Below are positions 22,510 to 32,302 of a stretch of 64,000 nucleotides of DNA, one piece after another; the stretch's first letter is position 1; every line of letters starts with the position of its first letter. The DNA is from Enterobacter ludwigii (GTDB lineage: Bacteria; Pseudomonadota; Gammaproteobacteria; Enterobacterales; Enterobacteriaceae), in the NCBI RefSeq assembly GCF_001750725.1, contig NZ_CP017279.1:62001-126000 (forward strand), in the 5' to 3' direction. The position numbers were made by a program, and so were the translations under genes. The notes under the pieces were generated by a model. It had not been told where the DNA came from and searched no databases. It was given only the letters and a program-made list of their open reading frames with translations.

Positions 22510-22585
22510 GCCGATATAGCTCAGTTGGTAGAGCAGCGCATTCGTAATGCGAAGGTCGTAGGTTCGACTCCTATTATCGGCACCA
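22510..22585 (+). tRNA. thrW: tRNA-Thr (CGU anticodon)
   Basis: A 76-base cloverleaf with acceptor stem GCCGATA pairing TATCGGC, anticodon CGT in the loop ATTCGTAAT, T-arm GGTTCGACTCC and encoded CCA. It lies right after proA as thrW does in E. coli, where its 3' end is a well-known integration site. An integrase remnant follows here. Confidence 0.97.
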
Positions 22586-23516: not shown

Positions 23517-25232
23517 ATGTCGCATGTAAGTATCAATGATTTTAAGTTGCTTAATATTAAATGCCAAAAATACTTTGATTTATTCAGTAAAACTAATCAA
23601 TTTGTTCAAGAAGTGAATGAACTTAAGTTACAACAAAGGTTTGGTTTTTATCTCTTCATGCTTGAATCATTATGTAATGAAAAAGATATAGATCGAATTA
23701 GTGATTACATTACAGATACTGAATACAACTCGTATTTATATGGTAACCGAAATGATGATCATGGTATTGATGCAATATTTATAGATAGTGAAGATAAGGA
23801 AATCAAGTTATTTAATTTTAAGTTCAGAGAACGATTCAAAGTTGACCAGAAGCAAAGTTTCAATGAGGCTTTTGTATCAACAAAACTTGTGAATTGTATT
23901 ATGAATGAAAGTGTCGATGGATTAGAAGGCAAGTTGGCGTTGTATGTGACAAAAATCAATGAATTACTCAATGGGAATGAAGTATGGAAACTTTCTTTAT
24001 ATATGGTGAGCAATGAAGCTTTGCCTATAGAACATGATGAAAGTGCTATCCAACAATTGAAAAATGTATATGACATGGAAGTAATATCTATATGCCTTCC
24101 ACATATAACAAGTATTATGTCAATACGTCCCGCTCCAATTAATGCGGAATTGATTATCGACAATGATTCTCTCATGTCTTATTCAGAGAGTTCAATTTCG
24201 ACATCAAAATCGTATGTTATCAGACTAAATGCTGCCGATGTAATAAGAATTACTTGTCGCAATGCTGATTTGCGCGGAGATCACAATTGTGAGAACTTTG
24301 AATTACTGGCAAACGAAAAAATAGATTTTGGGGTTCTTTTCGATAACGTCAGGGGGTTTGTTCAACGCTCGCGCTATAATGCAGGTATAGCCAAAACCTT
24401 GCGTGAAGAACCAAATAAATTATTCATGTATAACAATGGGTTAACGATAGTATCTAATGATATTAAAGCTCACCCAGTAAATGGTCACAGGAAGGTTAGA
24501 ATTAGTTTATCAGGAATCCAAGTCTTAAATGGTGGGCAAACGCTTAGAACACTTCATGATTTTAACGCGGTGGATAAATCAAATATTACAGAATATATTT
24601 CAAAAGGCGAACTTCTTGTTCGGATATTCAATGCGTCCAATAATGAAACTGCAAATAAAATAGCGGAATACACAAACAGTCAAAACTCTATTTCTAATGT
24701 AGACTTGAAATCATTAAGCACATTGCAAATACAACTAGAACAACTACTGGATGAGCATGGTATTATTTATTCTAGAAAAAATGGCGATACCGGGATTCAT
24801 GATGAAAAAGAATACCGATACAAAATTAGTATGGAGCAATTCGGTCAGATACTTTTCGCTTATCAAGGTTTTCCTGAAAAATCTTCAAACCAAAAGCAAC
24901 ATATTTTTGGAAAATACTACGATAGTATTTTCAGCGAGGATAATTTTAATATTTCAAATGCACCACAGTTAGTGGAAAGTTATTACGAAATCAAAAAGGC
25001 TTATTCATCTTCAACCGATAGCATACAGAAAATAGAACAGAAGATTTTCTATATAATTTATATGCATAAAGTCAGAGAAGATTGGAGCTATGAAAAATGC
25101 ATCAATATGCTTGAAGAAGCTTTATATTCTTATTATCCGCTCAGCGATGTTAGCCTCACTGATGCACGAAAAATGATTCAGGTACGATTCAGGGAATCAG
25201 TGTACGAAATGTTGTCCGATAATGAGCTTTAG
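23517..25232 (+). CDS. AIPR-family abortive phage infection protein
   Basis: A 571-residue AT-rich gene. The C-terminal half carries the AIPR (abortive phage resistance) signature: NVRG at 277-280, YNNGLTIVS at 305-313, NGGQT at 338-342 and a TNSQNSIS element at 386-393. The N-terminal part has GIDAIFID (Asp85) followed by FNFKFR (Lys102), a spacing like the D...xK core of Mrr/PD-(D/E)XK nucleases; this is inference. No signal peptide or membrane segment is seen. AAGGA lies 7 bases before the start. It stands alone in the thrW island with its own terminator, fitting a single-gene defence module acquired by transfer. Confidence 0.8.
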   Translation: MSHVSINDFKLLNIKCQKYFDLFSKTNQFVQEVNELKLQQRFGFYLFMLESLCNEKDIDRISDYITDTEYNSYLYGNRNDDHGIDAIFIDSEDKEIKLFNFKFRERFKVDQKQSFNEAFVSTKLVNCIMNESVDGLEGKLALYVTKINELLNGNEVWKLSLYMVSNEALPIEHDESAIQQLKNVYDMEVISICLPHITSIMSIRPAPINAELIIDNDSLMSYSESSISTSKSYVIRLNAADVIRITCRNADLRGDHNCENFELLANEKIDFGVLFDNVRGFVQRSRYNAGIAKTLREEPNKLFMYNNGLTIVSNDIKAHPVNGHRKVRISLSGIQVLNGGQTLRTLHDFNAVDKSNITEYISKGELLVRIFNASNNETANKIAEYTNSQNSISNVDLKSLSTLQIQLEQLLDEHGIIYSRKNGDTGIHDEKEYRYKISMEQFGQILFAYQGFPEKSSNQKQHIFGKYYDSIFSEDNFNISNAPQLVESYYEIKKAYSSSTDSIQKIEQKIFYIIYMHKVREDWSYEKCINMLEEALYSYYPLSDVSLTDARKMIQVRFRESVYEMLSDNEL

Positions 25233-25277: not shown

Positions 25278-25684
25278 TTAATTTATAACTTATCTTCATT
25301 TCGTGCGGTAAATTTTACACCTTGGTTATCATTTGCTCAGTACTTAAAGAATAAATAAAAGTGATGATTGTTTGTCCATGTTCATAGTCGGCAGTGCGGG
25401 GGGATTTTTGGGGGTATCTTAGAAATTGAAATGAATAAAATTACTCATGAATTAATTAAATAATAGGTGTTGTTTTATTCATATTATCGCGACAAAAATC
25501 AATTAAAAACAACAAATTAAATAGTTTGTCAGTCCCAGGTTACGATCTTTTTCATATTCTATAACCAACAGTTACCGCTATGGTTAACAGTTGCTATCAG
25601 AGATGTAAGTACGTAGCGACCCGTAGTTGTATAGCTCGAACAGATACTAAGCGTGACACTCCACACGAATCGCCACGTACTATG
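25278..25684. other. AT-rich non-coding right flank of thrW island
   Basis: About 400 bases with no credible ORF. Around 25396-25420 it contains GGGGGGATTTTTGGGGGTATC, which resembles G-run sequences seen next to integrase genes at tRNA ends. No clear copy of the thrW 3' end is visible, so an attR cannot be placed. Confidence 0.5.
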
Positions 25685-26326
25685 TTATTCATCACCATGC
25701 CTGAATATAAGTAAAATAAAAGGCATACAAGAATCCAAATGTGCCTCAATATCTGCTTTCTCAATGGGATCAGTTAAACCAATCGCTGCCTGCCGAAGAG
25801 GTTCGGCGACACACATGGCGAGTATGACTTTGGCACTGGTATCTGCAGGTAACATCGGCAACCAGCCCTGTTTTTGCTGTCGTGTAATCCACTCTGTGAG
25901 TAATTGTTGGCCGCGCGCTATGCCATTTTCAGTGTATTTCTTGAGGAGATCATCTTTACCAGGAAATTCAGTATTGAGAAGACGAAACATTTTCACGGCG
26001 GTTACTGATAGCGCCTGACCACAAATCGCAGCCAGTAATTTTCTTAACGCCGGTAAAACGTCATTCTTATCTGTCGGATCGCTCTGCAGGAGTGGGGCAT
26101 AGTTATCCGTCCAGTTTCGAACCGAAAGGCCAAGCAATTCCTCCCTGTTTTTCGCAAAGCGATAGACGGTCTTTTTGGCAACGCCTGCATGCGATGCAAC
26201 CGCCTCAATTGTTGTGGCGTCATAGCCTTTGTCAAAGAGCAAGGCCATCGCGCTACCAATGATTTGTTTCTTCACCTCTTCCTCAGGGACTGAGGGGCGT
26301 CCGCGTGGTTTGGTTGGTTGGGTCAC
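25685..26326 (-). CDS. TetR/AcrR-family transcriptional regulator
   Basis: A 213-residue repressor. The N-terminal helix-turn-helix is clear (TTIEAVASHAGVAKKTVYRF, about 38-57, after a basic KPRGRPSV lead), followed by an all-helical ligand domain. The GTG start at 26326 is the only fitting start near AAAGGA. It is divergent from the PhlG-like hydrolase, with a perfect 11-bp palindrome in the 108-bp gap, so it probably represses that gene and itself. Confidence 0.88.
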   Translation of the reverse strand: MTQPTKPRGRPSVPEEEVKKQIIGSAMALLFDKGYDATTIEAVASHAGVAKKTVYRFAKNREELLGLSVRNWTDNYAPLLQSDPTDKNDVLPALRKLLAAICGQALSVTAVKMFRLLNTEFPGKDDLLKKYTENGIARGQQLLTEWITRQQKQGWLPMLPADTSAKVILAMCVAEPLRQAAIGLTDPIEKADIEAHLDSCMPFILLIFRHGDE

Positions 26327-26373
26327 CCTTGAGATTCCTTTTCGCTTGTCATACGACCATTCTATCGGTAATG

Positions 26374-26400
26374 TTTAGGAAACGCACTTCGTTTCCTAAA
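26374..26400. promoter_or_regulatory. palindromic operator candidate for the TetR regulator
   Basis: TTTAGGAAACG / CGTTTCCTAAA are perfect 11-bp arms around the 5-base loop CACTT, lying between the divergent TetR and hydrolase starts. Length and position fit a TetR-family dimer site; no T-run follows, so it is not a terminator. Confidence 0.7.
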
Positions 26401-26434
26401 TGGTTCGAACTTCCCAATGCTAATGGAGAAAAAA

Positions 26435-27127
26435 ATGCGACAACACGATATTGCCAGGCCCTGGCTGGATTATTCGGCATTGCTTGATCCTTCTCCCATG
26501 CCGCTGGAGACAGGTATTAAACGTCTGGATGACGGGAGTCTGCTGGTCGCCGTACGCACCGATTTACATGGCTGCAAAGGACGTATGATTAACTGGTGGT
26601 TTACCTTCTTTGAAACGACGCAGCATATAAAATGGTGGCATCCCGTTGATCATGTTGAACATCGTGGATGGGACGCCAACTGGAAGCGTGGGGAAAGTTT
26701 TTACGGCGCAAGCATCCATGCCGTTGAATCATTAGCTGAAATCCCTCCCATTCCCGCGCGTCTTAAATTCCATCACCCTGCATCGGTATTTGGCGAAATG
26801 GCTGTCGACAAGGCAATGGGGGATGGGAGTGTCTCGGCAATCATTGCCGCAAGGATAGGCTTCGGTGAAAAAACTGAACTGGATAGCCAGGGCGACCCGC
26901 TGGACGGACAAATGCTACATGTTGTCCGGGATACGCCTTTTGGTTGTGTGCTGCGTAGCCGGTTTATTCTGGGTATGAGTAATGACGACCACGCTGAACC
27001 TGCCGATGACGTCGGATTAGCGCTTATGCGACACTGTTATACAGAGTTCACGTTCTTGTCTCGTTTCCTGCCTTCTCTGTATTACGGCGAGAAAGCGAAT
27101 GATGAGAAAATTGCGCTTCCCTGGTAA
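26435..27127 (+). CDS. PhlG-like (DAPG/phloretin hydrolase family) metalloenzyme
   Basis: A 230-residue protein resembling the family of 2,4-diacetylphloroglucinol hydrolase PhlG and phloretin hydrolase, which cleave C-C bonds to an aromatic ring using zinc. Candidate ligands are His in WWHPVDH, Glu/His around GESFYGASIHAVE, and the HxxxE pair in RHCYTEF near residue 200, matching PhlG's paired His/Glu. Start ATG 26435 follows GGAG at 6 bases; ATG 26417 lacks one. The divergent TetR gene suggests induction by a plant or Pseudomonas phenolic. Substrate is not determinable here. Confidence 0.7.
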   Translation: MRQHDIARPWLDYSALLDPSPMPLETGIKRLDDGSLLVAVRTDLHGCKGRMINWWFTFFETTQHIKWWHPVDHVEHRGWDANWKRGESFYGASIHAVESLAEIPPIPARLKFHHPASVFGEMAVDKAMGDGSVSAIIAARIGFGEKTELDSQGDPLDGQMLHVVRDTPFGCVLRSRFILGMSNDDHAEPADDVGLALMRHCYTEFTFLSRFLPSLYYGEKANDEKIALPW

Positions 27128-27311: not shown

Positions 27312-28694
27312 TCAATCGACGGATTTTACTGTGATTCCAGTAATGCTGAAATCGTTACCATCGCCGCTGGCTTTATGGCTGAAAATTTCCAGCACATTAT
27401 CGCCCTGTGCCGCCGTAAACTCTCCTGACAGCGTGACCCACTCGCCTTTCACGGCAAGTGCTGTAACCGAGGTAATATCCTGGCCTGCCACCCGCAGTGA
27501 CAGTTCGGGTATCACCTTGTAGTCATTGTCCCTGCGAGCCTGAAGGCTGAAGCGATAGCGTTTCCCCGGCTGGAGTTCCGAATAATGTTTATAAAGCAGC
27601 ACACCATTGTGTGTCCGACCTTTAACATTGGTGGTCGGAAAACGAATCATGGTCGCGCCACCTTCTGAGTAAAACTCATGCTCAGGCGTTGCCGGTCCAA
27701 ATTGCCAGTTATTCAGATGATTATTCGTAAACTTACTCTCATCCAGGAAAGGTGTTGGTTCGGGACTGACAGGGGCAGTGTCCGGCGCAGCGGGGGGTGA
27801 GGAGGGGGTCACCGGTTTGTTGTGATGTTCCTGACACGGGCAAGGGGGCGTATTCTCTTTGCAACGACAGTCGCTGGCGCAAGCGTCAATCAGGTTCTTA
27901 AGTACATCAGCAAGCGTATTCACCGCCCGGACAATCTCAGGGGCCTGTGCGCACAGATCGCTGCCATTACCGGGCGTCTTCGCTGGCGTTTTGCCTTCCA
28001 GCGCATCTGCTTCTTCTTTTTTGTTCGCCACGCTGTCGTGTTGCGTGGCCTTACTGGCGCAAATGGTGCTTTTTAAAACCGAGGCAAAATCGGCAATGCC
28101 GGAGGTGTAGATATAATGCTCACCACCCGTACGAAGCGCCAGGCGCTTGTATTCCCGAACCATGGCTTTCTCATCATCCGGGGTGGGATAAGGTAATGAG
28201 ACATGAGGCGTGCCCAGATAGGAGTGGATTTTGACACCGTACTCCAGGGCGGTGGCAATGGCATCATCGCAGGCTTTGATGCGGCCCGCATCCAGGGTCA
28301 TCTCCCCGCCTTTCAGACTTTCGTCTCCCAGCACAAAAACATTCTTTTCAGCGCCGTCACGCCAGTTGTAATGACGGATAACGTCCTCCGCAGCAGGCGC
28401 CACATCTTCCTGAGCGGGGTTCCCCTCTTTGACATACTCTCTGCCTTTCAGGGCGGACGGGTTAGCACCAGCCTCGCTCGTCAGGAACTGACGGACCGTT
28501 TTATTAAATTTGGTGCCGGCAAAAACGCCTTCGATACCCAGAAAATCAGTTCGTAAATCCGAAGGGCAGGCTTTTCTGGCCTCCTCAATGGCGCTCTCAA
28601 GTTTTGCACAGAGCGCTTCCGCTTCATCCTTCATTGAAAGACTGCTGTCGATGATGAAAACCAAATCAACTTTTTTATTGTCCATAATGCTCAT
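27312..28694 (-). CDS. von Willebrand A domain protein with C-terminal lectin-like module
   Basis: A 460-residue multidomain protein (484 bp of upstream context give an alternative start at 28718, 468 residues; 28694 is preferred because GGAG precedes it by 8 bases). A vWA domain with the MIDAS motif DSSLS (residue 16 onward) covers about 10-215. A Cys-rich stretch (CASDCRCKENTPPCPC) and a Pro-rich linker follow, then a beta-sandwich resembling carbohydrate-binding modules (about 320-460). No signal peptide is seen. It lies 87 bp downstream of the two-domain LecA gene, same strand, so probably co-expressed. The function is unknown; a metal-dependent adhesion partner of the lectin is inference. 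Confidence 0.7.
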   Translation of the reverse strand: MSIMDNKKVDLVFIIDSSLSMKDEAEALCAKLESAIEEARKACPSDLRTDFLGIEGVFAGTKFNKTVRQFLTSEAGANPSALKGREYVKEGNPAQEDVAPAAEDVIRHYNWRDGAEKNVFVLGDESLKGGEMTLDAGRIKACDDAIATALEYGVKIHSYLGTPHVSLPYPTPDDEKAMVREYKRLALRTGGEHYIYTSGIADFASVLKSTICASKATQHDSVANKKEEADALEGKTPAKTPGNGSDLCAQAPEIVRAVNTLADVLKNLIDACASDCRCKENTPPCPCQEHHNKPVTPSSPPAAPDTAPVSPEPTPFLDESKFTNNHLNNWQFGPATPEHEFYSEGGATMIRFPTTNVKGRTHNGVLLYKHYSELQPGKRYRFSLQARRDNDYKVIPELSLRVAGQDITSVTALAVKGEWVTLSGEFTAAQGDNVLEIFSHKASGDGNDFSITGITVKSVD

Positions 28695-28781
28695 ATCAGG
28701 GGCTCCATTAACGTTCATTTTTGTTTTCCAGTGAACCGGCAGGGAAGGCAGTGGATGGCATGTTGCCTCCCTGCGGGCATT

Positions 28782-29546
28782 TCAACCGAGCACAACAAAC
28801 CTGACGTCATAGCCTCCCGTATTATTGGCGTATTCAGACGCAACATTTGTATCGTTAAAAATGAATGAAATTTCGCCATCAGCAGGGACTTCCCAGTCGC
28901 TACCACCGCTTCCGATACCGTAAATATGCTCACCCGCTTTGATCAGTAATTTCCCCGCCAGTGCTTCTGGCAGGACAAAAGTGGGATCCGGTTTTTGCGC
29001 TGACGGATGCTGGCTGTCGCCGTCAGGTCCAAAGCTGCGACCGCGGCTGTCATACTGAGCGGTACCGGCAGCAATCAGCATCACCTTGTCCCCTTTGCTC
29101 ACGGATACGCCGGTGTGGGTCCAGTCACTGCGTGTTGCGGGAACATGACCTTTCCAGTCCGCCTTTTGAGCCGCCGCTTTCTTTTCGTCTTCAGCGATAT
29201 ACACAACCGCGCTGAAAGCGCCGCTGTTGTCGCGATGTGAAGAGTCACTGACCACGAGAATCAGCTCGCCGTCTTCCGGTACCGACCACTGGTAAACACC
29301 ACTGCCAACGTCATAGCTTTTTCCGGATGCACTGAATCGGGCTTTCAGCACCTTATCGTTCCGTAAGACAAAGCCCTCTTTTAGCCTGCCGTATGGCGAT
29401 GCCAGGGCGTAGTCTTCCTTACCGTATTTAATCCATCCTTCCGCAATAATACTGATTTTTTGCCCGGCTTTTAGTTTAAGTCCGGTATTAATGCCCGTGT
29501 CAGCAGTTGCGTCGATATTGCCCGACCATGCAGGTGAAACAGTCAT
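28782..29546 (-). CDS. two-domain LecA-type (PA-IL-like) lectin
   Basis: A 254-residue protein made of two tandem domains like Pseudomonas LecA (PA-IL, 121 residues). Domain 2 (about 127-254) keeps the calcium/galactose signature: Tyr165, GPDGDSQHPSAQ with His180 and Gln184, Asp232 in FNDTN, and Asn241-Asn242. Domain 1 (1-118) keeps Tyr41, Asp101 and Asp106-Asn107 but lacks the GPxGDxxHP loop, so its sugar choice should differ. No signal peptide, as in LecA itself. Domain 1 is closely similar to the separate gene at 30326, implying duplication. It leads the unit with the vWA gene. Confidence 0.82.
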   Translation of the reverse strand: MTVSPAWSGNIDATADTGINTGLKLKAGQKISIIAEGWIKYGKEDYALASPYGRLKEGFVLRNDKVLKARFSASGKSYDVGSGVYQWSVPEDGELILVVSDSSHRDNSGAFSAVVYIAEDEKKAAAQKADWKGHVPATRSDWTHTGVSVSKGDKVMLIAAGTAQYDSRGRSFGPDGDSQHPSAQKPDPTFVLPEALAGKLLIKAGEHIYGIGSGGSDWEVPADGEISFIFNDTNVASEYANNTGGYDVRFVVLG

Positions 29547-30227
29547 ATAATTCTCCGTAATCGTGACAGCGTCCAGCTTGTCAGTGGTATGAGGTAATAA
29601 ATAGTCTACAGATAATGATTTTTGTTACTCAGGGGTATGGCATTCACAATTAGAATATAAACAGATACGCCACTCAGCAAATAATATTCTGGAAATGATG
29701 CTGATGATTTCCGTTCGTCTCCCGTCTGCTGCAGTTCTGCGAATTAAACATTAGGATTAATCTCATGCTGTGTTTTGTTAATCCAGAGCGGTAATGTGTG
29801 TGAGTGAGAGGTATATGTTGAAACCAAAAGAGTAATACACAGGGTAACTAAGTGGATACTTGTTAACCCATTCCTTTTCCGTCGGGGAGGCGAGAAATTA
29901 AGTGGAGAGGTAGAGGTTTTTTATTGGACGGATATCACGACAGGCGGTGCTGTAATGCGCCCTCTCACTGCTTTGCGTACCTATTATTACCGCCATTCGG
30001 GTATGGTAATTAATTTACTAAAGGTATAATTACAGTCATGATTTAAAGTGCGATTACTCCTATAGTTAACATTAAGATCAATTATAAATCAGTGAGTTAG
30101 TGGTTGGTTGTGTTGGTGGATTTATATAAATCGCAGCGTAAAAAAAGAAATCGCATTATTCTTTCGACATAAGTCTGGAAAAGGTAAATATATTCATATG
30201 CATCCATGATGAAACGTTATGAATACT

Positions 30228-30249
30228 AAATGTGATGTCTGTCACATGC
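30228..30249 (+). promoter_or_regulatory. CRP-like site upstream of LecA-like gene
   Basis: AAATGTGA, six bases, then TCACATGC: both TGTGA/TCACA half-sites are perfect with the right spacing and AAA flank of the CRP consensus. The centre is about 88 bases before the ATG, so a transcription start about 40 bases downstream would make a class II arrangement. Confidence 0.7.
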
Positions 30250-30268
30250 CGGGGAGTTTTGTCTTTGA

Positions 30269-30289
30269 TTGATGCAAAGCACGCATCAA
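30269..30289. promoter_or_regulatory. dyad upstream of LecA-like gene
   Basis: Perfect 7-bp inverted repeat TTGATGC / GCATCAA around 7 bases, between the CRP-like site and the gene start. It could be an operator for an unidentified regulator or a 5' leader hairpin. Confidence 0.4.
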
Positions 30290-30325
30290 ATGTAATGTTA
30301 ATGAAATTTGATAAAGGAGAATAGC

Positions 30326-30685
30326 ATGACGGCTAAGCCAGATTGGTCCGGAGAAGTTCCTGCAAATATTCCTGCCGGTATTAATACAGGCCTGCAACTG
30401 AATGCCGGTGATGAGATAACGATAATGGCCTCTGGCTGGATTAAATACGGTAAAGAAGAATTTGCGCTGGCGGTGCCGGATGGCAGGGTGAAAGAAGGGC
30501 TCATTACCTGCAATGATAAGGTGCTGAAGGCGAGATTTGATACCTCTGGAAAAGGTTATGATATAGGCGGTGGAGTTTATAAATGGGCGGCTCCCCAAAG
30601 CGGTACCCTGCATCTGTATATTGCCGATACAGAGGCTGGATACTCTGATAATACCGGCAGTTTCAGCGTCAATGTATATCGGTAA
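30326..30685 (+). CDS. single-domain LecA-type lectin
   Basis: A 119-residue protein the size of one LecA domain. It is strongly similar to domain 1 of the two-domain lectin (shared GINTGL, GWIKYGKE, NDKVLKARF and GVYKW/GVYQW blocks). It keeps Tyr41, Asp101 and Asp108-Asn109 of the LecA calcium site but not the GPxGDxxHP loop. The start ATG 30326 follows AAAGGAGA; the earlier ATG at 30308 has no ribosome site. No signal peptide. A CRP-like site upstream suggests catabolite control. Confidence 0.8.
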   Translation: MTAKPDWSGEVPANIPAGINTGLQLNAGDEITIMASGWIKYGKEEFALAVPDGRVKEGLITCNDKVLKARFDTSGKGYDIGGGVYKWAAPQSGTLHLYIADTEAGYSDNTGSFSVNVYR

Positions 30686-31087: not shown

Positions 31088-32302
31088 TTACTGGCGCTTA
31101 TCCTGCAACGCCTTCAGGGGTAAACGCCATACGTCATAGCGCTCCTGGCCAGGTTTGACCGCGCCAGCAAAATGGTCGTTCAGGCTGCTGGAGGTAAAGA
31201 TCAGATCCCCGTCCGGATTGATGGCCGGCGTGTCCGGCCAGTGTACGCCGTCGTTTGACGCCATCAGGGTCATTGAGCCGCGCTTCGGTTCATACCTGAC
31301 AATACCGTTGTGTGTCACATCGGTGATATAGAGGTTGCCTTTGGCATCGGTCACGATACCGTCGGTATTGCCTCCCACCGAACCAAGATCCCGGATCTGT
31401 GCCGCAATCTGCGTATCGTCAGCACCAGGCTTTCGCAGAATGTCAGTCGGTACCGCAAACGCATGGGTCCCTGTCGTCACCGTCCAGTAGAGCGTGCCGG
31501 TATCCGGAGACAGCGCAATACCGTTGATGCCAATCAGTAATGGATGACCTGGCCAGACTTCAGCCCCGTGCGAGACGACTTTCACACCCGGCTCAATCTG
31601 CAGGTCTGGATGACGGTCGAGCACGCGTCGGGCAGTGCCGGTTGCGAAATCGGCGATGATAAGACCGACGCGGTTCTCAGGCGCACTGCGCGAGCCGCTG
31701 TCGGAGATGTAAGCGACACGACGCGTCTCATCAACAACCACATCATTGAGGAAGCTCGCCTTGCGGTCTGCCACACTATCCAGTGGAATGCGTTTGATCG
31801 TGCGGCCGGTATTCAGATCCAGCACCATCAGTTTCTGCGAACCCACGGGGGATTCCGCTTCTCCCGCGACGAACCCCATATCCAGGGCCCACAGCCAGCC
31901 ATTCTTACGGTCAATATAGAAGCCAAGCACGTTACGCAGGTTCTGATCGGGAGCGGTTTCCACCGCATTCCCCTCGCGGGACGGAAATGCCGTGAGGCGC
32001 GCCGGTCCGGTCTGAACGGTCGTATCAAGAATACTTAACGTCGCGGGTGCACCGGCTGAAACCAGTCGGGGGGTACTGACAAAGGCTCTTCCCATTGCAT
32101 CAAAGTGGATGCCTGCGATGGGCGCGTTAACCGAGCCGGAAAACGGCGTCGGCGTTTCCCCCTTCTCAGGCGTATTCCAGGTTACGCCGGTATAGCTGCG
32201 CCAGCGCTCAAGAGGGGCCTGGTTCGCTGCGCTGGCTACGCTCGCAAAAGAGAACAACATTGCCATCGCGATGGCGGACATATTACGGGTACGTTTGAAC
32301 AT
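31088..32302 (-). CDS. major royal jelly/yellow-family periplasmic protein
   Basis: A 404-residue protein with a signal peptide (about 1-25, ending ASA) and a six-bladed propeller-type sequence matching the MRJP/yellow family. Typical blocks are SFLNDVVVDETRRVAYISDSG, GINGIALSPDTGTLYW and GNTDGIVTDAKGNLYITD, the latter like the metal-site loop of SMP-30 lactonases. It should act in the periplasm, perhaps as a lactonase or ligand binder; substrate unknown. An SDR gene sits just upstream on the same strand (68 bp), so they may be co-transcribed. Confidence 0.8.
   Translation of the reverse strand: MFKRTRNMSAIAMAMLFSFASVASAANQAPLERWRSYTGVTWNTPEKGETPTPFSGSVNAPIAGIHFDAMGRAFVSTPRLVSAGAPATLSILDTTVQTGPARLTAFPSREGNAVETAPDQNLRNVLGFYIDRKNGWLWALDMGFVAGEAESPVGSQKLMVLDLNTGRTIKRIPLDSVADRKASFLNDVVVDETRRVAYISDSGSRSAPENRVGLIIADFATGTARRVLDRHPDLQIEPGVKVVSHGAEVWPGHPLLIGINGIALSPDTGTLYWTVTTGTHAFAVPTDILRKPGADDTQIAAQIRDLGSVGGNTDGIVTDAKGNLYITDVTHNGIVRYEPKRGSMTLMASNDGVHWPDTPAINPDGDLIFTSSSLNDHFAGAVKPGQERYDVWRLPLKALQDKRQ

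What the first reader, a model, noticed from the sequence alone, without database searches (positions are those of the whole stretch)
27312..30685. LecA-type lectins paired with a von Willebrand A protein
A two-domain LecA-like lectin and a vWA/MIDAS protein with a C-terminal carbohydrate-binding-like module lie head to tail, and a third LecA-like domain is divergent from them. Only domain 2 of the tandem lectin keeps the full Pseudomonas LecA signature (Tyr165, His180, Gln184, Asp232, Asn241-242); the other two keep the calcium ligands but not the GPxGDxxHP loop. None has a signal peptide. The arrangement suggests a multi-specific, calcium-dependent glycan adhesion or self-recognition system. 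I know LecA homologues exist outside Pseudomonas, but not a described system of this composition.
Basis: partly seen in the sequence, partly recalled or inferred. Interest (0 to 1): 0.72.

Follow-up and report, generated by a model that had tools for sequence, protein, structure and literature searches.

The report
Mix-and-match bacterial lectin gene cluster
A gut-type bacterium carries three neighbouring genes for sugar-binding proteins, one of them joined to an adhesion-type domain; the trio itself was already noted in print, but its parts turn out to be building blocks that bacteria recombine in many ways.

Summary
On an Enterobacter ludwigii-type chromosome lie a two-domain LecA lectin and, 63 bp downstream on the same strand, a von Willebrand A (vWA) protein with a C-terminal carbohydrate-binding module; a single LecA domain is transcribed divergently. 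The claim that this composition is undescribed is wrong: Beshr et al. 2024 (PMC11875179) name these three E. ludwigii proteins, the vWA domain and their proximity. Added here: (1) the vWA protein belongs to a distinct leaderless family whose vWA "chassis" carries different C-terminal modules (EclA-C-like, LecA, propeller-like, others) or none; (2) LecA domains also stand N-terminally before the same modules, and one unnamed relative has eight such genes; (3) N-terminal LecA domains are of the PllA/EclA-N type in 26 of 26 cases, C-terminal ones of the P. aeruginosa LecA type in 23 of 25 (many near-copies); (4) the window's EclA-C-like module keeps three of five calcium-coordinating residues of EclA-C and few fucose contacts. 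Best reading: a modular set of leaderless glycan-binding cross-linkers. Function, release route and the vWA ligand are untested; the vWA-LecA link is real but facultative. Interest moderate.

The parts
27312..28718 (-). vWA + EclA-C-like carbohydrate-binding protein (468 aa; possible real start 28694)
28053..28679 (-). vWA domain, about residues 14-222; DxSxS (D24,S26,S28) and D132 of a MIDAS-type site; E104/D105 where a canonical Thr would be expected (judged by order of elements only)
27873..28043 (-). helical stalk (conserved AVNTLADVL-type helix), followed by a Cys-containing and Pro-rich linker
27324..27755 (-). C-terminal module homologous to EclA-C (PF02018; PDB 6yf6)
28782..29546 (-). 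two-domain LecA/PA-IL lectin, first gene of a probable two-gene operon with the vWA gene (63 bp gap)
29196..29531 (-). LecA domain 1, PllA/EclA-N type (D..DN, no His loop)
28800..29156 (-). LecA domain 2, P. aeruginosa LecA type (GPDGDSQHP loop, NN)
29547..30325 (.). 779-bp divergent intergenic region, mostly A+T-rich; no Rfam family at gathering threshold, promoter-like matches no more than expected by chance
30326..30685 (+). single-domain LecA/PA-IL lectin (119 aa), PllA/EclA-N type

Best explanation
The three genes encode leaderless glycan-binding proteins built from a shared pool of modules. Shown: LecA domains of two types, an EclA-C-like module, a vWA fold with DxSxS...D, adjacency, and repeated module swapping across bacteria. 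Inferred: the proteins are made in the cytoplasm, reach the outside by lysis or an unknown route (as recalled for LecA), and act as cross-linkers, calcium-dependent at least for the LecA domains. The C-terminal module reads the glycan (a galactose-type site in LecA domain 2; an unknown, probably non-fucose, glycan for the vWA protein's module). The N-terminal position, filled by a PllA/EclA-N-type LecA domain or by vWA, gives the second attachment: another glycan for LecA, most likely a protein for vWA, with the helical stalk spacing or oligomerising it. The likely role is tying cells to each other, to matrix or to host or plant surfaces.
For: Same C-terminal modules behind either N-terminal domain: LecA-EclA-C (L052, L091) and vWA-EclA-C (window, L044-L046); LecA-propeller (L041, L088) and vWA-propeller (L042, P0020); LecA-LecA (window) and vWA-LecA (P0046, P0048-P0051). 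N-position LecA domains are D..DN/no-His in 26 of 26; C-position ones NN/His-loop in 23 of 25 (near-copies included). On an 81-row vWA tree the attached module changes repeatedly; starred branches alone force at least 3 changes for EclA-C and 4 for propeller. LecA-vWA adjacency in three different chromosomal settings. The window's EclA-C-like module has Thr, Gly and Asp at T181, G271 and D273 but other residues at I180, S269, M270, K217, Y218 and I215 (roles of these residues from PMC11875179, section read). vWA fold. vWA and lectin modules both occur as adhesive or predicted binding modules on modular pilins (PMC8179133, passages).
Against: Nothing shows export, and a leaderless vWA-lectin could act inside the cell. 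The canonical MIDAS Thr appears replaced, and in the G809 relative L043 the third DxSxS residue is Gly and the later Asp is Asn, so the MIDAS is not kept throughout. In the window's EclA-C-like module two of five calcium-coordinating positions differ (I180P, S269G), so calcium binding there is unsure. The propeller and other modules have no PDB sequence match; their sugar binding is assumed. vWA and LecA are often found alone. PllA, which binds galactosides (paper), has the DN/no-His pattern too, and P. aeruginosa LecA, a single-domain protein, has the NN/His pattern, so the pattern fixes neither position nor specificity by itself.
Confidence: 0.48

Rival explanations
1. Host-directed adhesins: like EclA, these are lectins for host (animal or plant) glycans and the vWA binds host matrix proteins.
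For: EclA-C binds Lewis A and H type II antigens (PMC11875179); LecA genes lie near chaperone-usher fimbrial genes in L041 (PapD, Usher, Fimbrial) and on plasmid L021 (annotation).
Against: The window's module lacks most EclA-C fucose contacts; the vWA family also occurs in records named Olivibacter, Inquilinus, Nostoc and Nannocystis, which as far as I recall are mostly free-living.
Confidence: 0.2
2. Intracellular sensors: leaderless vWA-lectins detect sugars from lysis, phage or cell wall and signal inside the cell.
For: No signal peptides; the chassis occurs in records of cyanobacteria and myxobacteria (names, groups recalled); an AIPR/AbiU-like candidate abortive-infection gene lies upstream in the window; the L043 vWA gene is followed upstream by a gene with a histidine-kinase-type ATPase domain.
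Against: No PADLOC match at E<=0.1 for the three window proteins, P0020, P0104 or the Proteus protein; in 22 vWA relatives scanned with Pfam no kinase, MoxR ATPase or known effector domain passed its cut-off, though many modules there have no Pfam name.
Confidence: 0.17
3. No shared system: separately acquired lectin cargo genes in a variable tRNA-Thr region that happen to sit together.
For: The region is variable: homology with relative G034 stops at the tRNA-Thr end (22583) and resumes at 31116, apart from one short match; vWA in 1 of 61 genus genomes; 12 of 15 vWA genomes lack LecA.
Against: Adjacency repeated in L046 and, divergently, in L041; five of 14 two-domain lectin entries share the longest-contig length of a vWA entry; direct vWA-LecA fusions.
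Confidence: 0.15

Closest known systems
EclA of Enterobacter cloacae (PMC11875179; PDB 6ygq, 6yf6) and the three E. ludwigii homologues named there
   Same: The paper's E. ludwigii trio (PA-1L family protein, two-domain lectin, vWA-carbohydrate-binding protein in direct proximity) is this locus by composition; homologous LecA and EclA-C modules
   Different: In the sections I read, EclA and its domains were tested, the E. ludwigii proteins only compared; the window's EclA-C-like module lacks most fucose contacts; vWA stands where EclA has its LecA domain
LecA (PA-IL) of Pseudomonas aeruginosa
   Same: PF07828 domain; domain 2 keeps Tyr36, His50, Asp100, Asn107 and Asn108 equivalents
   Different: Tandem in one chain; Gln53 and Thr104 not matched; longer calcium loop; domains 1 and 3 lack the His loop
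PllA of Photorhabdus luminescens (PDB 5odu)
   Same: Domains 1 and 3 share its D..DN pattern without the His loop
   Different: PllA is a single-domain tetramer and binds galactosides (paper); ligands here unknown
vWA/MIDAS adhesive modules (PilB of Streptococcus sanguinis, PMC8179133; integrin I domains)
   Same: vWA fold, DxSxS and Asp of a MIDAS; a companion pilin (PilC) carries a lectin module
   Different: No pilin part and no signal peptide here; Glu/Asp seem to stand in place of the MIDAS Thr

Membership tests
PA-IL/LecA lectins (PF07828) | profile match above the curated cut-off | tested here: met
   99.2 and 77 bits vs cut-off 22.5
PA-IL/LecA lectins (PF07828) | calcium-site Asp and Asn residues | tested here: met
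   D100 and N108 equivalents in all three domains; N107 is Asp in domains 1 and 3, as in EclA-N, which binds calcium
PA-IL/LecA lectins (PF07828) | galactose-contact His50/Gln53 of P. aeruginosa LecA (roles recalled) | tested here: inconclusive
   His in domain 2 only; Gln53 aligned in none; PllA lacks the His loop yet binds galactosides
PA-IL/LecA lectins (PF07828) | calcium-dependent galactoside binding | not testable with these tools
   needs protein
vWA domain proteins | vWA fold | tested here: met
vWA domain proteins | canonical MIDAS DxSxS...T...D | tested here: inconclusive
EclA-C fucose-binding modules | sequence homology to EclA-C | tested here: met
   E=1.1e-18 to 6yf6
EclA-C fucose-binding modules | calcium-coordinating residues I180, T181, S269, G271, D273 | tested here: inconclusive
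   P, T, G, G, D in the window: three of five identical
EclA-C fucose-binding modules | fucose-contact residues I215, K217, Y218, S269, M270 | tested here: not met
   N, Y, K, G, D in the window; so not filed as a fucose-binding EclA-C
Described E. ludwigii lectin trio (Beshr 2024) | same three architectures, adjacent | tested here: met
   relative P0001, 98% identical, is named E. ludwigii

The most novel reading that the evidence does not exclude
Bacteria keep a combinatorial toolkit of leaderless lectins in which two interchangeable N-terminal anchors (a PllA/EclA-N-type LecA domain or a distinctive vWA chassis) are recombined with a changing set of C-terminal glycan readers (EclA-C-like, LecA, propeller-like, others), giving single genomes repertoires of up to eight such genes; adjacent LecA and vWA genes supply both anchors for one locus.
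Probability: 0.45. Interest if true: 0.65.

Novelty: new variant of a known kind. Interest (0 to 1): 0.42.

Why it matters
The LecA-type N-terminal domain of EclA has no known ligand despite two glycan arrays (PMC11875179). Finding that a vWA domain takes its place before the same C-terminal modules suggests that this position is an anchor, perhaps for a protein or the bacterium's own surface, which would redirect the ligand hunt. It also gives a defined set of natural module swaps for studying how bacterial lectins differ in target.

Tried and rejected
Pfam and NCBIfam gave no vWA name for the window protein; the Pfam Monooxygenase_B and NCBIfam AmoB hits on its C-terminus lie below their cut-offs and were taken as fold noise. 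TNFRSF17 hits in the Cys-rich linker (best E=0.039) were taken as composition matches. No match in phage records and none confirmed in one viral-contig scan that finds close relatives only: a phage origin found no support. No near match of the locus in E. coli genomes. Plasmid hits for the vWA protein were two Proteus mirabilis records of about 4 Mb labelled plasmid, which look like chromosomes. A single-protein search of 394 order genomes found only the window's own vWA, a profile search of 398 phylum genomes one further, doubtful hit (model positions 6-43, E=6.5e-4): the family is rare in those samples. A scan of named genomes found one locus, Serratia rubidaea. Limits: 7995 and 7998 candidates were scored, and 120 of 163 hits listed. 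One search examined 131 proteins with a profile made from 13 related rows, so all match by construction. The tree used 81 of 138 labelled rows, is a quick tree, warns of long branches (L043, P0043 and others), and its 'none' label means under 115 residues after the vWA domain. In one search, 38 rows were printed; L007 and L078 gave no LecA domain, L076 gave no frame, and the two-domain lectins of G009 (interrupted) and G014 were not put in; P0051 was counted as not NN/His. No exact repeat of 10 or more bases of the tRNA-Thr 3' part was found downstream, so no attachment site was shown. Promoter-like sites were at chance level (5 found, mean 5.1 in shuffles). The propeller label rests on Pfam hits below cut-off and no PDB match. 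Papers: of PMC11875179 I saw the outline and abstract, passages, the first of eight parts of the text, and the sections on crystallography, bioinformatics, discussion and bioinformatics methods, not the rest; of PMC8179133 passages only; all others as search listings. The statement that the wider module-swapping family was not found in print rests, in an open-access library alone.
Full report
WHERE IT IS. The window lies on a 4.95-Mb genome that looks like Enterobacter ludwigii: the closest database relative of the vWA protein is 98% identical, is named E. ludwigii and stands for 535 member sequences. The locus sits between a tRNA-Thr (22510-22585), downstream of proB/proA (names from my reading of the ORFs), and a 404-aa gene at 31088 found in 14 of 61 genus genomes, 11 of them with long, close matches. 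In relative G034 the DNA is homologous up to the end of that tRNA (window 22583) and again from 31116, with different genes in between and one short extra match at 25495-25673. So the lectins are cargo of a variable region. GC falls to 0.29-0.37 in its first part.

ALREADY IN PRINT. Beshr et al. 2024 (PMC11875179; parts seen) report for three complete E. ludwigii genomes a PA-1L family protein, a two-domain lectin and a protein with an N-terminal vWA and a C-terminal EclA-C-like domain, in direct proximity. That is this locus by composition. In the parts I read, EclA of E. cloacae was tested and these proteins only compared. The paper also mentions EclA-C relatives in Pseudomonas and Serratia.

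RESIDUES. In a joint alignment, domain 2 matches P. aeruginosa LecA at Tyr36, His50, Asp100, Asn107 and Asn108, not at Gln53 or Thr104. Domains 1 and 3 match EclA-N at Asp114, Asp121 and Asn122; the His loop is absent. The EclA-C-like module has P, T, G, G, D at the five calcium-coordinating positions of EclA-C (I180, T181, S269, G271, D273): three of five identical. At I215, K217, Y218 and M270, which pack against the fucoside, it has N, Y, K and D; at E178, I214 and R275, which contact it across crystal mates, R, D and S. The roles are from the paper. A fucose ligand is therefore unlikely to carry over unchanged, and calcium binding is likely but not sure; both are inferences from an alignment at about one third identity. 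Among relatives, P0052 (Pseudomonas costantinii) keeps more of these residues.

THE vWA FAMILY. A protein search found 64 relatives; a profile search found 163, of which 120 were listed. In a 65-row alignment the D, S and S of DxSxS, CP, a later Glu and Asp-Glu are invariant; the more distant G809 protein L043 departs at the third S and at the Asp. Attached parts differ: EclA-C-like (records or loci of Enterobacter, Dryocola, Serratia, Pantoea, Pseudomonas costantinii), a propeller-like module of about 270 aa (Pseudomonas, Pseudocitrobacter, Olivibacter), LecA (Inquilinus), nothing (Proteus), and further modules. Of the latter, 35 N-terminal segments form one cluster that includes cyanobacterial and myxobacterial records, and several small clusters are C-terminal. 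P0053 of Inquilinus and L043 of G809 are 41% identical over 342 residues, through the vWA domain and the module behind it; that module has no Pfam name. The propeller label is tentative.

MODULE SWAPPING. On a tree of 81 vWA rows the attached part is clustered but changes repeatedly: at the fewest 8 changes for propeller, 6 for none, 5 for EclA-C; starred branches alone force 4, 4 and 3. The 14-row starred clade that holds the window has 11 EclA-C and 3 propeller rows; a 9-row starred clade has 6 propeller, 2 headless and 1 EclA-C. It is a quick tree with 27 of 76 inner branches open.

PAIRING WITH LecA. In 392 genomes of the tool's family group, vWA occurs in 15, LecA in 7, both in 3: P=0.0015, or 0.016 leaving out the window's own genome; the genomes are related, so these are rough. 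Ten of the 15 look like the Proteus-type headless protein by frame length; two of the ten were examined (L053, L054). In all three genomes with both, a LecA gene neighbours a vWA gene: the window; L046 (same order; on a contig whose length matches the Dryocola clanedunensis records; hydrogenase-type genes nearby); and L041 (a LecA-propeller gene divergent to a headless vWA gene). Against obligate pairing: 7 of 61 Enterobacter genomes have LecA and no vWA match, and the Serratia-type vWA-EclA-C genes have no LecA neighbour in 16 kb (L044, L045).

TWO POSITIONS. Of 38 LecA-type proteins or frames examined, 36 gave LecA domains. In multi-domain proteins, N-terminal LecA domains are D..DN without the His loop in 26 of 26, and C-terminal ones NN with the loop in 23 of 25 (exceptions P0078, P0051); single-domain ones are D..DN in 5 of 5, although P. 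aeruginosa LecA itself, not in that count, is NN with the loop. Many rows are near-copies, so the independent number is much smaller. The pattern suggests an anchor position and a reader position. In the fusions with LecA, EclA-C-like or propeller-like modules that I examined, vWA is N-terminal.

HOW IT MAY WORK. Shown: modules, adjacency, swapping, residue patterns. Inferred: release without a signal peptide as recalled for LecA, cross-linking, and protein binding by the vWA. Host adhesion, intracellular sensing and mere co-residence are the rivals. Nothing here tests them at the bench. After checking I lowered the main reading from 0.50 to 0.48 and raised the sensor rival from 0.15 to 0.17, because two calcium positions differ in the EclA-C-like module, the MIDAS is not kept in L043, and a kinase-type gene lies beside L043's vWA gene.

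NOVELTY. The locus is known in print and its domains are members of known families. The vWA-chassis family with swapped glycan modules, the two-position pattern and the changed fucose contacts were not found in the papers searched, which cover open-access papers alone.

Noticed in passing
window 23517-25232 (+): AIPR protein (PF10592) with PADLOC matches to AbiU and MzaE, in very A+T-rich DNA soon after the tRNA-Thr: a candidate phage-defence gene.
   Followed up: partly
window 25685-27127: Divergent TetR regulator and a PF18089 (DAPG hydrolase PhlG domain) protein; the pair recurs at 85% and 93% identity in one other of 61 Enterobacter genomes, G009, with no lectin gene in the 16 kb around it. 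Far below the NCBIfam PhlG equivalog cut-off.
   Followed up: partly
L041 1-6400 and L021: LecA genes lie close to chaperone-usher fimbrial genes, with LuxR-type regulators (L041) or an EAL gene (plasmid pSB89A_IMI-2, L021). Single LecA genes occur on four conjugative plasmids in PLSDB.
   Followed up: partly
L091 1959-6198: A hybrid sensor kinase with SBP_bac_3 domains and a LuxR-type response regulator (BvgSA-like in make-up, recalled) lie just upstream of a LecA-EclA-C gene.
   Followed up: no
L020 7878-8837; L054 6746-7777: Proteus-type genomes carry a headless member of the vWA family, with the stalk and Cys motif but no lectin module, between an add-like gene and a 559-569-aa gene, with a fumC-like gene next (gene names from my reading of the ORFs).
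   Followed up: partly
P0104, P0119, P0122 and 32 other proteins: An N-terminal module cluster of 35 rows includes cyanobacterial and myxobacterial vWA relatives; the three members scanned (P0062, P0104, P0119) have no Pfam match at E<=0.01.
   Followed up: no
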